Origin: Antrihabitans auranticaus
GTDB lineage: Bacteria > Actinomycetota > Actinomycetes > Mycobacteriales > Mycobacteriaceae
DNA: 64,000 bases
Assembly (NCBI RefSeq): GCF_016481275.1
Contig: NZ_JAEMNW010000001.1
Coordinates: 1,293,531 to 1,357,530 of the forward strand
Direction of reading: 5' to 3'
Of the stretch, positions 645 through 61,356 are shown piece by piece; position 1 is the first letter of the stretch; every line of letters starts with the position of its first letter. The notes beneath the pieces are model-generated. The model did not search any database. It was not told the DNA's origin and saw nothing but the letters and a program-made list of their open reading frames with translations. The position numbers and the translations under genes were made by a program.

Positions 645-847
645 AACCCCGTCCCGTGGGTACCGGAACCCGACGAAACACGAGGGACGGGGGCGGGGGA
701 CCCACGTTCCCCACAGGGACATTTGGAAAGACTCGAAAGAGCCATTCCTTTGGGGTGAAGCCAGACGCACTCGCAAGAGCGCCGAGGCCGGGCGACCTCT
801 CAGCCCGAACCCGACAGCTGACCTCGTAGGTGCGTGCGGGAGAGGTA
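645..847 (+). ncRNA. c-di-AMP riboswitch (ydaO-yuaA type) in the rpfA leader
   Basis: The 3' part of the leader contains the ydaO signature almost letter for letter: CCCGAACCCGACAGCTGACC followed by TCGTAGG at 804-830, and the internal TTGGGGTGAAGCC at 750-763. A 7-bp helix ACCTCTC (795-801) with GAGAGGT (840-846) closes the 3' domain. Upstream G-rich and C-rich tracts from about 645 to 720 fit the first domain, but that boundary is approximate. ydaO leaders are known upstream of rpf and cell-wall hydrolase genes in Actinobacteria, where c-di-AMP lowers expression. The GAGAGG of the closing helix is also the only Shine-Dalgarno-like sequence before the TTG start at 855, so ligand could act on translation. 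Confidence 0.85.
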
Positions 848-22843: not shown

Positions 22844-23476
22844 ATGTTCGTAACGCATCAGGTTTCGCTGTTCGACGTGGCGGTTACCGGTCCGCAGCTG
22901 GGCGAACTCGATGGCACCGTTCGGCGTCGTACACTCGGCGCGGGAGCGTGGGTCGACCACAGGCCGGGCTGGATCAGCGGATCCGAAGACCTGTTCACCA
23001 CACTGCTGACCGACGTACCGTGGCGCGCCGACCGCAGGCAGATGTACGACCGTGTCGTGGACGTTCCTCGGCTGCAATGCTTTTATGACGCGACGGTGCC
23101 ATTGCCGCATCCTGTGCTCGACGAGGCGCGCAGAGCGCTCGGCGAGCACTACCGCGCCGAACTCAGTGAGCCGTTCACCACCGCCGGGCTGTGCTATTAC
23201 CGCGACGGCTCCGACAGCGTCGCCTGGCACGGCGACACAGTCGGGCGAAGCCGGACCGACGACACCATGGTCGCGATCGTGTCGCTAGGCGAAGCGCGCG
23301 CCTTGCTGCTCCGCCCACGGGGCGGCGGCGAGTCGGTCCGCTACCTGGTGGGCCACGGCGACCTCCTCGTCATGGGCGGCAGTTGCCAACGGACCTGGGA
23401 ACACGCGGTGCCCAAAACCGCGCGTCCCGTGGGCCCCAGGATCAGCGTGCAGTTTCGCCCGCACGACGTGCGCTGA
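22844..23476 (+). CDS. alkB: AlkB-type alpha-ketoglutarate-dependent dioxygenase
   Basis: Fe(II)/2-oxoglutarate oxygenase that repairs alkylated DNA or RNA bases, 210 aa. The iron triad is visible in VAWHGDTVG (H-x-D) and TWEHAVPK (His), with the 2-oxoglutarate Arg in GPRISVQFRP at the C-terminus. LCYYRDGSDSVAWHGD is the family core, close to ALKBH2/3 and bacterial AlkB-like proteins. ATG at 22844 follows the TetR gene by 10 bp. The 3' end overlaps by 35 bp the convergent aroG gene. Confidence 0.9.
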   Translation: MFVTHQVSLFDVAVTGPQLGELDGTVRRRTLGAGAWVDHRPGWISGSEDLFTTLLTDVPWRADRRQMYDRVVDVPRLQCFYDATVPLPHPVLDEARRALGEHYRAELSEPFTTAGLCYYRDGSDSVAWHGDTVGRSRTDDTMVAIVSLGEARALLLRPRGGGESVRYLVGHGDLLVMGGSCQRTWEHAVPKTARPVGPRISVQFRPHDVR

Positions 23477-24530
23477 CCGCCGCTGCGAGTTCGTCGAGCA
23501 GGTTCTCCGTCGTGGGCCAGTCGACGCAGGCGTCGGTGATCGACTGCCCGTATGCGAGATCGGCTTTGCGGCCCAACGTGAGATCTTGACGTCCCGCCGC
23601 GAGGAAGCTTTCGAGCATCACGCCGACGATCTTGCTGTCGCCCTGGGCAATTCGCTCCGAAATGCTCGCGACAACATCTGCTTGCCGATTGTGATCCTTC
23701 GCGCTGTTGCCGTGGCTGGCGTCGACAACCACCCGCTCCGGCAAACCCGCCTTCCGCAGTCGTGTCATTGTCTCGGCGACCGAGGCCGCGTCGTAATTGG
23801 TGCCACCACTGCCGCCCCGAAGTATGACGTGGCAGTCCTCGTTGCCGGAGGTCTGAATCAACGCCGCGCGACCGTCCTGCCCCATACCGGGGAACACGTG
23901 GCTCGCCGCGGCGGCGCGGGCACCGTCGACCGCAACCTGGATGTCGCCGTCAGTGCCGTTCTTGATGCCGACCGGCATCGACAGCGCGCTGCTCAGCTGC
24001 CGGTGCACCTGACTGGCCGCGGTGCGAGCACCGATTGCGCCGTAGCTGACGAGGTCGGCGATGTACTGCGGAGTGATCGGGTCGAGGAACTCACATGCGA
24101 CTGGCAGTCCGCGAGAAGATATGTCCAACAGCAGCTTTCGCGCGATACTCAGTCCGGTGTTCACGTCGAAGCTGCCGTCCAGATGCGGGTCGTTGATCAG
24201 GCCCTTCCAGCCGAGCGTCGTGCGTGGCTTCTCGAAGTAGACCCGCATGACTATGTGCAGGCGGTCCCCGAGTTCTGCCGATTTCGTCGCCAGCCGCTCC
24301 GCGTACTCGAGCGCGGCGGCGGGGTCGTGTACCGAACAGGGTCCGACGACGACCAGCATTCGGTCGTCGGCACCGTTCAATACGTCGACCGTGTCGCGGC
24401 GACCGGAGCGCACGGTTGCGGCCGCGGGAGCGTCGGCGATGTGGCGCGCGCGCAGTTGCGCAGGCGAAATGAGCGGACTCACGCTGATGGTGCGCAGGTT
24501 GTCCAGTTCGGCATCGAGTGTGATTGTCAC
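23442..24530 (-). CDS. aroG: 3-Deoxy-7-phosphoheptulonate synthase (DAHP synthase, class I)
   Basis: First enzyme of the shikimate pathway, condensing phosphoenolpyruvate and erythrose 4-phosphate; 362 aa. Class I (AroFGH) motifs: LVVVGPCSVHDPAAALEYA, RVYFEKPRTTLGWKGLINDP, EFLDPITPQYIADLVSYGAIGART, VILRGGSGGTNYD and VVDASHGNSAKDH. GTG at 24530 is preceded by AGGAAG. Upstream lies a short leader peptide rich in Tyr, Phe and Trp plus two competing hairpins, so expression probably responds to aromatic amino-acid supply. The symbol follows the class; feedback specificity cannot be read with certainty. Confidence 0.94.
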   Translation of the reverse strand: MTITLDAELDNLRTISVSPLISPAQLRARHIADAPAAATVRSGRRDTVDVLNGADDRMLVVVGPCSVHDPAAALEYAERLATKSAELGDRLHIVMRVYFEKPRTTLGWKGLINDPHLDGSFDVNTGLSIARKLLLDISSRGLPVACEFLDPITPQYIADLVSYGAIGARTAASQVHRQLSSALSMPVGIKNGTDGDIQVAVDGARAAAASHVFPGMGQDGRAALIQTSGNEDCHVILRGGSGGTNYDAASVAETMTRLRKAGLPERVVVDASHGNSAKDHNRQADVVASISERIAQGDSKIVGVMLESFLAAGRQDLTLGRKADLAYGQSITDACVDWPTTENLLDELAAAVSARRAGETAR

Positions 24531-24729: not shown

Positions 24730-24746
24730 CGACGCCGCGGGCACGC

Positions 24747-25623
24747 GCAAAGGGTCAGCCGCCCCGGTGAGTCGCGAACCATTCGTTCGTGCTCACGGGC
24801 CGCGGGCTGCACCGCGAGCCCACTCGCCGGGCCGGGTGCCCGAGCCCGAGCAAAGGGTCAGTCGCCCCGGCGTGTCACCGACCATTCGTTCGTGCTCACC
24901 GACACCGCGGGCTGCACCTCGAGCCCACTCGCCGGACCGGGCGCCGACCCCGAGCAAAGGGTCAGCCCTCCCGGCGTGCCGCGAACCATTCGTTCGTGCT
25001 CACGGGGCCGCGGGCTGCACCTCGAGCCCAGTCGTCGGGCCGGGCGCCCGAACACGAGCAACGGGTCAACCGCCCCGGCGTGTCACCGACCATTCGTTCG
25101 TGCTCACCAACACCGCGGGCTGCACCTCGCTCGCGAGCTCCCCCACGGGCCCACTCGCCAGGCCGGACACCCCAGCACGAGCAAAGGGTCAGCCGCCCCG
25201 GCGTGTCGCGAACCATTCGTTCGTGCTCGCCGCGGCTCGAGGTGCGCGACCGGTCCGCAGACTGGCCGACCGGGCCTTCGCGGCGCGAGATGGGCCGTGG
25301 CGCCACCACAATCGCCCACTCGTCGGGCCGGGCGCCCGACCCCGAGCAAAGGGTCAACCCTCCCGGCGTGTCACAAACCATTCGTTCGTGCTCACCAACA
25401 CCGCGGGCTGCACCTCGAGCCCACTCGCCAGGCCGGACGCCCGAGCACGAGCAAAGGGTCAGTCGCCCCGGTGTGTCGCGAACCATTCGTTCGTGATCAC
25501 CAACCCCGCGGGCTGCACCCCGTTCGCGAGCACCCCTACGGGCCCACTCGCCAGCCCAGGCGGCCCACCACGAGCAAAGGGTCAGCCCTCCCGGCGTGTC
25601 ACAAACCATTCGTTCGTGATCAC
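24747..25623. repeat. Array of eight 50-bp repeats with shared spacers
   Basis: Eight blocks, each exactly 50 bp with no indels, begin at 24747, 24850, 24954, 25058, 25181, 25346, 25451 and 25574. Spacers are 53, 54, 54, 73, 115, 55 and 73 bp, and most are themselves alike (GCGGGCTGCACC, CCACTCG, GGCCGG). Core text on the plus strand: AACCATTCGTTCGTGCTCAC at the end and GCAAAGGGTCA at the start. On the minus strand every block reads as a 13-codon open frame from GTG (one copy GCG) to TGA, about STNEW-F/S-A/V-T-R-R. A hairpin CGAAC-GAATG-GTTCG is kept, with wobble, in six copies. The array fills the gap between the aroG leader promoter and the ohrR promoter. Long open frames cross it in several phases but most repeat periods (103, 104, 104) are not multiples of three. 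No transposase or cas gene is nearby. Confidence 0.93.
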
Positions 25624-25653
25624 CGGGGTGGAAAGAGCGAATCGAAACTTATA

Positions 25654-25682
25654 TTGCACACAACTTAATTGTGGACTACAGT
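25654..25682 (+). promoter_or_regulatory. ohrR-ohr promoter with embedded OhrR operator
   Basis: TTGCAC (25654-25659) and TACAGT (25677-25682) are spaced by 17 bp. Between them lies CACAA-CTTAA-TTGTG (25659-25673), a dyad of the AATT-rich type bound by OhrR repressors. The predicted start point is about 7 bases after the -10, at the GTG of ohrR (25690), which would make the mRNA leaderless. AT-rich sequence stands out from the GC-rich array beside it. Confidence 0.7.
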
Positions 25683-25689
25683 TATCTCC

Positions 25690-26139
25690 GTGCCCGACGA
25701 ACTGTCACTCGACCGCCAGCTGTGCTTCGCGCTTTACACCGCGTCGCGGGCGATGACTGCGGCCTATCGGCCAGTTCTGGAGTCACTCGGCGTCACCTAT
25801 CCGCAATACCTCGTCTTGCTTGCACTGTGGGAGCGAGACGGGCGCGGCGTCGGCGACCTGTGCGACGCGTTGCACCTGGACACGGGCACGTTGTCACCTT
25901 TGCTCAAACGGCTCGAGGCGCTCGACCTCATCAAGCGGCAACGCCTCACGGCCGACGAACGTCGGGTCGAGATCCGGCTCACAGACAAGGGCGCAGGGCT
26001 TCGCGGCAAAGCCTGCGACATCCCGCACCACGTCGCGCGCAACAGCGGACTTCGCGTAGAAGATCTGGGCGACCTCAGGGAAGTCCTTGTCCGACTGACA
26101 GATTCACTCAACGCATCACTGACGAAAGTGGAAAAATGA
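25690..26139 (+). CDS. ohrR: MarR-family organic peroxide sensor OhrR
   Basis: One-cysteine or two-cysteine type MarR repressor sensing organic hydroperoxides, 149 aa. The reactive Cys is in LDRQLCFALYTASRAM near the N-terminus (C13), the standard OhrR position; a second Cys occurs in LCDALHLDTGTLSPLLKRLEALDLIKR, within the DNA-binding helix region, and a third in KACDIPH. The wing is RLTADERRVEIRLT. GTG at 25690 was chosen because it restores the VPDELSLDRQLCF start and coincides with the predicted transcription start. The stop overlaps the ohr start (ATGA). Confidence 0.92.
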   Translation: MPDELSLDRQLCFALYTASRAMTAAYRPVLESLGVTYPQYLVLLALWERDGRGVGDLCDALHLDTGTLSPLLKRLEALDLIKRQRLTADERRVEIRLTDKGAGLRGKACDIPHHVARNSGLRVEDLGDLREVLVRLTDSLNASLTKVEK

Positions 26140-60393: not shown

Positions 60394-61356
60394 CTAACTG
60401 GCAGTCCGCTCGTGTTTGCGTGCGTCCCTCGCCAGTGAGCGGTCACGCTGCTCCTCGAACTTCGGCACTTTCACGGTAGCCATGTCGTCGAGGTACGCGG
60501 CAAGTTCGTCGCGGACCTTCTCACCGTGGGCGCTGAAGTCGTTGCGATCGAAGATGTTCCATTTCCGCAGCACGGGCATGACAACTTCCTCCAGGTGCTG
60601 GCGCAGGTCGTAGATGCCGTGCTTGGCCATCAGGACGCCGTTGCGGCGGAAGTTCGGCATGCCCGCACCGGGCATCTGGAAGTTCTGGACGATGAGGTTG
60701 ATGCCCTCGATCGTCTGGTCCGGCGCGACGTCGAGCGCGGCGCCGCACAAGTTGCGATAGAAGATCATGTGCAGGTTTTCGTCCGCGGCGATGCGCTGCA
60801 GCATCCGGTCCGCCATCGGTTCGTTGCATGCTCTGCCCGTGTTGCGATGCGAAACGCGCGTCGCCAGCTCCTGCATGGTCACGTACGCGAGAAATGCCAG
60901 CAATCGCGCGTCATCGCCGCCGGGCGGTGCGACCGCGCCGTTGGTCATGTGCTCCATGCGGTCACGTTCGAGCGCGACAGGATCGACCGCACGGGTGACG
61001 ACGAGATAGTCCCGCAGGACGATGCCGTGGCGGTTCTCCTCGGCGGTCCAGCGGCCGACCCACGTACCCCAGGCGCCGTCCAACGAGAAGTTGTCGCCGA
61101 TCTCTCGGTGATACGAAGGCAGATTGTCTTCGGTGAGAAGGTTGGTGATCATCGCGGCCCGTGCGAGTTCACTCAGTTGCGACTGGGCGAGATCCCAGTC
61201 CTCGCCACCGAGCGCGGCATAGTTTCGGCCCTCGTCCCACGGCACGTAGTCGTGCGGATGCCACTCCTTGGCAACCGAAAGATGCCGGTTCAGGTTTTGT
61301 TCGGCGACCGGCTCCAACTCGGTCAACAACGCCGCCCGTGACAACTTCTTCATCAT
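60394..61356 (-). CDS. Acyl-ACP desaturase (DesA-type)
   Basis: Soluble di-iron desaturase of 320 aa that introduces a double bond into an acyl-ACP or acyl-CoA. Iron ligands are seen in TAEENRHGIVLRDY (E-E-x2-H) and AADENLHMIFYRN (D-E-x2-H), and the first helix Glu in LAQSQLSELARAAMITNLLTEDN in part. The N-terminal RAALLTELEPVAEQNLNRHL is the family start. ATG at 61356 has AAGGGG 5 bp upstream. It lies 49 bp upstream of the GGDEF-EAL gene on the same strand, so they may share a transcript. Related to mycobacterial DesA1/DesA2. Confidence 0.92.
   Translation of the reverse strand: MMKKLSRAALLTELEPVAEQNLNRHLSVAKEWHPHDYVPWDEGRNYAALGGEDWDLAQSQLSELARAAMITNLLTEDNLPSYHREIGDNFSLDGAWGTWVGRWTAEENRHGIVLRDYLVVTRAVDPVALERDRMEHMTNGAVAPPGGDDARLLAFLAYVTMQELATRVSHRNTGRACNEPMADRMLQRIAADENLHMIFYRNLCGAALDVAPDQTIEGINLIVQNFQMPGAGMPNFRRNGVLMAKHGIYDLRQHLEEVVMPVLRKWNIFDRNDFSAHGEKVRDELAAYLDDMATVKVPKFEEQRDRSLARDARKHERTAS

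What the first reader, a model, noticed from the sequence alone, without database searches (positions are those of the whole stretch)
24747..25623. Eight exact-length 50-bp repeats fill the aroG-ohrR intergenic region
Blocks of exactly 50 bp recur eight times without any indel, while spacers vary from 53 to 115 bp and are themselves related. The array starts 17 bp above the aroG leader promoter and ends 30 bp above the ohrR promoter. Constant block length with variable spacers means the block is the unit under selection, or a mobile unit that inserted repeatedly. No known family (IS, REP, CRISPR, iteron) was recognised.
Basis: seen in the sequence. Interest (0 to 1): 0.85.

Follow-up and report, generated by a model that had tools for sequence, protein, structure and literature searches.

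The report
Nuclease gene with its own palindromes
The eight repeats are one local array of a 62-base palindromic element scattered over this bacterium's genome, and in related bacteria elements of this kind flank, in inverted pairs, a nuclease-like gene, which looks like an undescribed gene-plus-repeat partnership.

Summary
The array is real: eight copies, no indels, between aroG and ohrR. The true unit is 62 bp: two inverted arms (GTGATCACGANNAAANGG type) at fixed spacing around a CGGCGTGTC centre. The own genome (grouped with Antrihabitans) holds at least 67 such elements in 17 places, each array with its own dialect; some relatives carry mostly solitary copies.

The key result lies outside the window. 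In the own genome, Aldersonia and Skermania a ~300-aa gene (AbiEi-like N-terminus, DUF559/Vsr-like nuclease C-terminus) has inverted copies of the element on both sides. Of 51 homologous loci (at least 41.5% identity), 44 have flanking inverted repeats stronger than all 1000 genomic control placements. Their sequence differs by lineage and, in the genomes sampled, recurs scattered elsewhere at fixed length (58 bp at 18 of 20 places in unnamed genus g45). Many of the genes share chromosomal addresses between species or genera; none was found in the plasmid and phage collections.

The organisation is that of REP/RAYT systems, but the enzyme is unrelated, and the own genome has no Y1 transposase. 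That the nuclease spreads the palindromes is inferred, not shown. Nine literature searches of an open-licence library found no description.

The parts
24736..24797 (+). 62-bp palindromic element, copy 1 (left arm degenerate)
24839..24900 (+). 62-bp palindromic element, copy 2
24943..25004 (+). 62-bp palindromic element, copy 3
25047..25108 (+). 62-bp palindromic element, copy 4
25170..25231 (+). 62-bp palindromic element, copy 5
25335..25396 (+). 62-bp palindromic element, copy 6
25440..25501 (+). 62-bp palindromic element, copy 7
25563..25624 (+). 62-bp palindromic element, copy 8
23442..24530 (-). aroG, DAHP synthase class I (flanking gene, divergent from ohrR)
   Evidence: PF00793 E 2.7e-88; ORF
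25669..26139 (+). ohrR-type MarR regulator (flanking gene)
   Evidence: PF01047 and PF22381
26136..26555 (+). ohr, OsmC/Ohr family (next gene)
   Evidence: PF02566

Best explanation
The array is a locally amplified patch of a dispersed palindromic element that belongs to a two-part genomic system. The other part, outside the window at G000:C1:677761-678684, is a ~300-aa protein with an AbiEi-like (probably DNA-binding) N-terminus and a Vsr/EDxHD/DUF559-type nuclease C-terminus. Its gene is flanked by inverted copies of the element. SHOWN: fixed element length; dispersal; inverted flanking of the gene in several genera; lineage-specific element sequence shared by both flanks and, in the genomes sampled, by scattered copies; chromosomal addresses of many of the genes shared between species or genera. 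INFERRED: the protein recognises the element (arms in dsDNA, or the whole hairpin/cruciform) and its nuclease activity copies or moves the element in trans into new, mostly intergenic sites. The gene itself is largely inherited in place, as RAYTs are, although the own genome's copy sits at an address not seen elsewhere. In this genome some insertions then expanded by recombination or slippage into arrays such as this one, which need have no role of its own for aroG or ohrR.
For: Element: with the gap between arms left free (18-32 bp), all 29 own-genome elements that match have gap 24; of 35 including A. cavernicola one has 23 (counts halved because the pattern is palindromic). A model of 46 elements finds 67 non-overlapping places at E<=4e-10 in 17 loci, 46 of them the training copies. 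Half-site counts in 301 family genomes: 82 own, 29, 26, 24, 16, 11 in five others, 0-7 elsewhere; reversed control 0-2. Gene: 55-60% identical homologs flanked by inverted elements in the own genome, Aldersonia and Skermania. Of 51 unique loci 44 exceed the maximum of 1000 control placements and 46 the 99th percentile (sequences); loci of one address are not independent. Genes of N. brasiliensis/N. vulneris are flanked by inverted elements sharing ends and centre with the scattered ones. Shared addresses. Element similarity tracks protein similarity (Mantel r 0.64/0.62, p 0.001, 37 loci). In 28 g45 genomes arm counts are median 35 with a cognate gene (11) and 3 without (17), p 0.0007. Scattered g45 elements keep pairing by covariation, 0 of 500 shuffles. 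Nuclease relatives: PDB 3r3p E 0.002, PF18741 E 4.6e-7, below cut-off. No Y1 transposase in G000.
Against: No movement, binding or cleavage was observed, and no empty site or target duplication was resolved. Some element-rich genomes lack a close cognate gene: Aldersonia kunmingensis G021 and g45 genomes G282 (66 arms), G069 (29), G221 (20). Seven of 51 loci do not beat the control maximum (L159, L163, L169, L181, L186, L199, L212). The own gene and Skermania's first copy share flanks with no other fetched locus. In the own genome the arms do not covary: 500 of 500 shuffles paired at least as well, and six elements folded gave z from -1.0 to -4.9. A. cavernicola elements show no covariation. 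At address E the two sides match less than the same side between genomes, and at D and G hardly more; that comparison also favours the within-locus score, because segments were chosen by it. The split of g45 genomes was made by reading flanks after the counts were known. Three g45 genomes do have a Y1 gene, and they rank 1st, 2nd and 6th in arm count, but those genes have no such arms or inverted repeats beside them.
Confidence: 0.6

Rival explanations
1. Operator rival: the palindromes are binding sites of the AbiEi-like domain. The gene is autoregulated by the flanking copies, and scattered copies and arrays are regulatory targets or titration decoys; the nuclease domain has another job.
For: The N-terminus matches AbiEi models in PADLOC (best E 2.3e-8 for the Aldersonia protein, only 0.0015 for the own one). 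AbiEi of Streptococcus suis binds palindromes IR1/IR2 in its own promoter (PMC11062541, passages read). Arm sequence is conserved without covariation in the own genome, as for a dsDNA site.
Against: Elements lie downstream as well as upstream of the gene. Of 17 scattered g45 copies with both neighbours called, 9 lie between convergent genes and 1 between divergent ones. Inner stems covary in g45, which a dsDNA operator does not need.
Confidence: 0.15
2. Host-function rival: the palindromes are REP/BIME-like host sites (terminators, gyrase or nucleoid-protein sites, mRNA stabilisers) kept for chromosome or RNA function; the nuclease gene merely happens to carry them.
For: Mostly outside called genes, many between convergent genes. 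Strong hairpins in four A. cavernicola elements folded (z -6.9 to -9.2).
Against: Presence is patchy within genus and family. The element sequence differs between genomes at one address, A, B, C and F above all. This array lies between divergent genes.
Confidence: 0.1
3. Ordinary-transposon rival: the elements are MITEs of a conventional IS, or REPs moved by a Y1 (RAYT) transposase, and the DUF559 gene is a passenger.
For: Arms resemble terminal inverted repeats. Three g45 genomes rich in arms (G268 197, G100 126, G261 38) have Y1_Tnp genes.
Against: 14 of the 17 element-bearing genomes searched, the own one among them, have no Y1_Tnp (control rings in E. coli). The four Y1 places found have no type-I arm within 1.5 kb and no inverted repeat across them. 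No GTAG/CGTC head by reading. The gene between inverted copies is repeatedly the same nuclease family.
Confidence: 0.07
4. Homing rival: the gene is a homing-type drive. The nuclease cuts alleles lacking the gene or element and repair copies it in; scattered palindromes are protected or decoy target sites.
For: The best match among solved structures is a 'Mobile intron protein', 3r3p (E 0.002; recalled as the EDxHD homing nuclease I-Bth0305I). Many genes sit at shared addresses.
Against: Scattered elements lie at many unrelated sites without the gene; the gene is bounded by inverted palindromes rather than inserted into one cut site.
Confidence: 0.08

Closest known systems
REP/REPIN-RAYT (TnpA_REP) systems
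   Same: A nuclease-type gene flanked by inverted copies of an imperfect palindrome that is also scattered extragenically; lineage-specific, co-diverging sequence; one or a few genes per genome; clusters (PMC2817692 and PMC3116915, passages read).
   Different: The protein is Vsr/DUF559-like with an AbiEi-like N-terminus, not a Y1 HUH transposase; no GTAG head; the element is one palindrome of fixed length (58 bp in g45, 62 bp in the own genome, longer in Nocardia).
MITEs
   Same: Short, non-coding, inverted-repeat, dispersed.
   Different: No parental transposon with a DDE or Y1 transposase identified (DDE not searched for); no target duplication seen; many of the genes stay at shared addresses.
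AbiE type IV toxin-antitoxin, AbiEi antitoxin
   Same: N-terminal similarity (PADLOC models); AbiEi binds palindromes (PMC11062541, passages).
   Different: Joined to a nuclease-like domain; sites on both sides of the gene and genome-wide. An AbiEii partner was not searched for.
EDxHD homing endonucleases and Vsr (names recalled)
   Same: Weak profile match of the C-terminus (3r3p E 0.002, 3hrl 0.044, 1cw0 0.98); conserved E, D, E and H residues.
   Different: Not in an intron or phage gene as far as seen; associated with inverted palindromes.
Mycobacterial MIRU (recalled)
   Same: Intergenic tandem arrays in the same order of bacteria.
   Different: Recalled as direct repeats without a cognate nuclease gene; not compared here.

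Membership tests
REP-RAYT / REPIN | Y1 HUH (PF01797) transposase gene in the genome | tested here: not met
   0 in G000; 3 of 17 element-bearing genomes have one, without cognate arms beside it
REP-RAYT / REPIN | Gene flanked by two inverted copies of the palindrome | tested here: met
   but for a different gene family: 44 of 51 loci above the control maximum
REP-RAYT / REPIN | Palindrome scattered extragenically in the same genome | tested here: met
REP-RAYT / REPIN | GTAG (or CGTC) tetranucleotide head | tested here: not met
   none in alignments A1, A2, A4, by reading
MITE of a DDE insertion sequence | Parental IS with the same ends; target-site duplication | tested here: inconclusive
   the gene bounded by the arms is DUF559-like; no empty site or duplication resolved; DDE genes not searched for
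CRISPR | Unique spacers between repeats | tested here: not met
   spacers are related to one another
Plasmid iterons | Repeats beside a plasmid rep gene | tested here: inconclusive
   neighbours are aroG, ohrR and ohr on a 1.7-Mb contig; no rep profile was run
Rfam RNA families | Covariance-model match at gathering score | tested here: not met
   no hit at the array, two elsewhere in the window
DUF559 / REase_MTES_1575 (Pfam) | Pfam gathering score | tested here: not met
   PF18741 30.3 and 32.0 bits against 38.2; PF04480 16.5 and 18.7 against 20.6: related, below cut-off
PD-(D/E)XK / EDxHD nuclease | Catalytic residues and fold | tested here: inconclusive
   E201 and D234 invariant, E245 and H252 at least 90% in 43 sequences; structure not predicted
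AbiEi antitoxin | Adjacent AbiEii toxin | not tested
   only the AbiEi-like N-terminus was tested

The most novel reading that the evidence does not exclude
Across Mycobacteriales there is an overlooked class of self-propagating genome partnerships: a resident AbiEi-plus-Vsr/EDxHD-like nuclease gene and its cognate fixed-length palindromes, which it copies around the genome in trans. It would be a convergent counterpart of REPIN-RAYT built on an unrelated nuclease, with several specificities coexisting per genome and rapid co-turnover of protein and palindrome.
Probability: 0.55. Interest if true: 0.93.

Novelty: categorically new. Interest (0 to 1): 0.85.

Why it matters
REP-RAYT is the described case that I know of in which a resident nuclease gene is tied to scattered palindromes, and its authors call it an open question what keeps the pair from extinction (PMC3116915, passages). 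An unrelated enzyme with the same organisation would show that the arrangement arose more than once, which points to a general advantage and makes the question testable by comparison. It would give a role to a nuclease family labelled only DUF559 or AbiEi-like, and would explain a class of intergenic palindromes in several Mycobacteriales genera.

Tried and rejected
RNA or DNA hairpin as the conserved feature in the own genome: not supported by pair counts, although g45 elements covary; A. cavernicola elements give no signal. RAYT as mobiliser: no Y1 gene in the own genome; in three g45 genomes with one, no cognate arms beside it. A link to DUF559 genes in general: the six Pfam DUF559 hits of the own genome do not lie at its arrays. 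Three of them gave a tblastn hit: L121 and L122 without, L120 with a 36-bp flanking repeat. Of eight loci under 41.5% identity four exceed the control maximum (L207, L209, L210, L120) and four do not (L208, L211, L121, L122). A profile search of 14 genomes gave 30 loci, some the same as before (L215, L216, L229) or one genome twice (L218/L219, L239/L240); 16 exceed their shuffles and 14 do not. Helical phasing of arm distances (42 = 4 turns) was considered; distances between elements do not follow it (reading, no test). Coding through the array: no codon-position bias. Literature: nine searches, listings only, showed no paper on DUF559/AbiEi genes with palindromes or on these repeats; the two papers and the Caulobacter Vsr-like paper were judged by title and abstract start. 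PMC3733652 holds none of six actinobacterial names tried, PMC12306157 one table mention; PMC12915292 was seen in passages.

Rows dropped before counts: duplicates L187, L213, L214. L159, L187 (no start) and L183, L212 (internal stop) left out of the protein set; 43 of the 58 remaining proteins aligned. The 57-bp element left out of the 19 paired g45 ones. A1 holds 46 of the 65 candidates, which were cut out at a fixed arm offset of 42, so A1 is no test of spacing; one search is. The address comparison used 34 loci. In one search one g45 count was entered as 1 instead of 0 (G312); one search repeats the test with 0 and with two other assignments (p 0.0007, 0.0007, 0.0003).

Full report
1. What is in the window. 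Between aroG (minus strand, start 24530) and ohrR (plus strand, start 25669) lie eight copies of a block with no indel, spacers of 53-115 bp and a mean pairwise identity of 88%. The core motif is far above chance. Comparison with other arrays shows that the unit is 62 bp: a left arm related to GGTGATCACGAGCAAAAGG, a centre with CGGCGTGTC, and a right arm related to ACCATTCGCTCGTGATCACC. Where the gap between the arms was left free (18-32 bp), the 29 own-genome elements that match all have gap 24.

2. It is a dispersed family in the own genome. A sequence-only model of 46 elements finds 67 non-overlapping places at E<=4e-10 in 17 loci of the 6.5-Mb genome; 46 of the 67 are the training copies, and the tool scored 150 of 8506 first-look candidates. 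No gene called by my composition filter overlaps an array, but the filter misses some genes. Some arrays lie between convergent genes (L053, L063, L116); this one lies between divergent genes. Each locus has its own dialect: 88% identity within against 68% between arrays (permutation p 0.001). Local amplification explains the array better than repeated insertion. The two arms do not covary; six own-genome elements folded gave z from -1.0 to -4.9, the two from the window -2.0 and -2.3.

3. Relatives. A pattern scan of the named genome collection (arms with a free gap of 18-32) found 23 stretches: Antrihabitans cavernicola, two Aldersonia, a Skermania, two N. brasiliensis strains, N. vulneris and one Acidimicrobiales metagenome bin; the tool may leave the own genome out. 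Contig lengths identify G003 as A. cavernicola, G021 and G062 as Aldersonia and G044 as Skermania; G003 is in the own genome's genus. The gap is 24 in 11 cases, 23 in one and 29 in all 11 Nocardia cases. The 12 A. cavernicola copies examined are mostly solitary; four folded are long hairpins (z -6.9 to -9.2). Half-site counts in 301 family genomes are patchy: 82 own; 29, 26, 24, 16 and 11 in five others; 0 to 7 elsewhere; reversed control 0 to 2. Two of the four genomes of the own genus have at most two.

4. The gene. Looking for inverted arms about 1 kb apart, I found in the own genome (C1:677761-678684), in Aldersonia (L146) and in Skermania (L147) a gene of about 300 codons with inverted copies of the element on both sides. 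The proteins are 55-60% identical to each other and about 30% to three DUF559 paralogs of the own genome. The N-terminus matches AbiEi models (E 2.3e-8 for Aldersonia, 0.0015 for the own protein). The C-terminus matches REase_MTES_1575 and DUF559 below the curated cut-offs and, by profile, the solved structures 3r3p 'Mobile intron protein' (E 0.002; I recall it as the EDxHD homing nuclease I-Bth0305I), 3hrl (0.044) and 1cw0, a mismatch endonuclease recalled as Vsr (0.98). E201 and D234 are invariant, E245 and H252 at least 90% conserved in 43 sequences. No homolog was found in 72,556 plasmid records at E 1e-20 or 50,697 phage records at E 1e-5.

5. Generality. 33 of 301 family genomes have a homolog at E<=1e-35. 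For 51 unique loci with at least 41.5% identity, the inverted repeat between the two flanks scores above the maximum of 1000 random placements in the window in 44 and above the 99th percentile in 46; L159, L163, L169, L181 and L212 are below it, L186 and L199 between. Loci at one address are related, so these are not 51 independent cases. By reading, most of the repeats are themselves palindromes of about 56-62 bp, with sequences that differ by lineage. More distant homologs are mixed: 4 of 8 and 16 of 30. In N. brasiliensis and N. vulneris the gene is flanked by inverted palindromes that share ends and centre with the scattered ones but differ at a few arm positions. In A. kunmingensis (G021), which has 24 half-sites, no close homolog was found; its best one is flanked by other repeats.

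6. Inheritance and co-divergence. Blastn of outer flanks groups many loci into shared addresses. Address A links G002, G003, G014 and three g6 genomes on both sides, and Aldersonia on one side. Address F links three genomes of the own genus and Skermania on both sides. Address B is g45, with Skermania on one side only. C, D, E and G lie within g45. The own-genome gene and Skermania's first copy match no other fetched locus. At A, B, C and F the two sides of the gene resemble each other more than either resembles the same side in another genome; at D and G hardly more, at E less (34 loci). The within-locus score is favoured there because segments were chosen by it. Element similarity follows protein similarity for the N-terminal (r 0.64) and C-terminal part (r 0.62), Mantel p 0.001, 37 loci; shared ancestry contributes to this.

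7. Scattered copies in g45. The arm CGAGCAGACRCARA was counted in the same 301 genomes; genomes outside g45 have 0 to 4. The 28 g45 genomes split into 11 with a gene flanked by this type and 17 without: medians 35 and 3, one-sided Mann-Whitney p 0.0007 (which corrects one count). The split was made by reading flanks with the counts known. G282, G069 and G221 have many arms without such a gene; these may be relics, or a gene was missed. Twenty places were fetched in six genomes, 10 of them chosen because two arms were already listed about 44 bp apart. Nineteen hold a paired palindrome (length free between 45 and 70 in the search), 18 of exactly 58 bp and one of 57; nine of the ten not pre-paired do so. 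Three of the 19 overlap an ORF call: L255 by 13 bp at its end, L257 at its start, L262 inside. Of 17 with both neighbours called, 9 are convergent, 7 tandem and 1 divergent. Inner stems change but keep pairing: 48 cells changed on both sides against 25 in shuffles, none of 500 as high; the number of further pair types does not differ (18 elements).

8. Interpretation. The organisation is that of REP-RAYT: genes flanked by two inverted REPs, scattered REPs, clusters, co-evolution, single-copy genes (PMC2817692, PMC3116915; passages). Membership fails: no Y1 gene in the own genome and in 14 of the 17 element-bearing genomes searched, the own included, and no GTAG head. I therefore describe a separate class that works like REP-RAYT, with an unrelated nuclease as the likely actor. 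Binding of palindromes by an AbiEi protein has precedent in Streptococcus suis (PMC11062541, passages). Mobilisation by the nuclease is an inference; operator, host-site and homing readings remain open.

9. Limits. No experiment and no empty site. Structure was not predicted, DDE transposases and AbiEii partners were not searched for. The literature library is open-licence only; nine searches showed no description.

Noticed in passing
window 661-847 (+): c-di-AMP riboswitch (ydaO/yuaA leader), RF00379, 59.1 bits.
   Followed up: no
window 60971-61038 (+): ASdes sRNA family, RF01781, 65 bits, described by Rfam as a TB sRNA, here outside Mycobacterium.
   Followed up: no
L042 463-1041 (G003, Antrihabitans cavernicola): The interval upstream of ohrR in A. 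cavernicola shows no such array by reading but holds another DUF559-family gene (28% identity to the cognate protein), with an aroG match on its far side.
   Followed up: partly
L109 1918-1989 and 3538-3609 (G003:C1): Two nearly identical elements in direct orientation 1.6 kb apart, both with the same altered right end: probably a local duplication.
   Followed up: no
L229 (G003:C40:191660-192418): The closest A. cavernicola homolog (59%) has no start codon in reach of the match, which begins at residue 49, and an arm on one side only: probably a decaying gene.
   Followed up: partly
L222, L223, L230, L232-L236: More distant DUF559/AbiEi-like genes in g45 and G001 are flanked by inverted repeats of yet other sequences, suggesting a larger superfamily.
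   Followed up: partly
L116 1846-2155 (G000:C5): Two elements lie within a longer direct duplication that includes flanking sequence.
   Followed up: no
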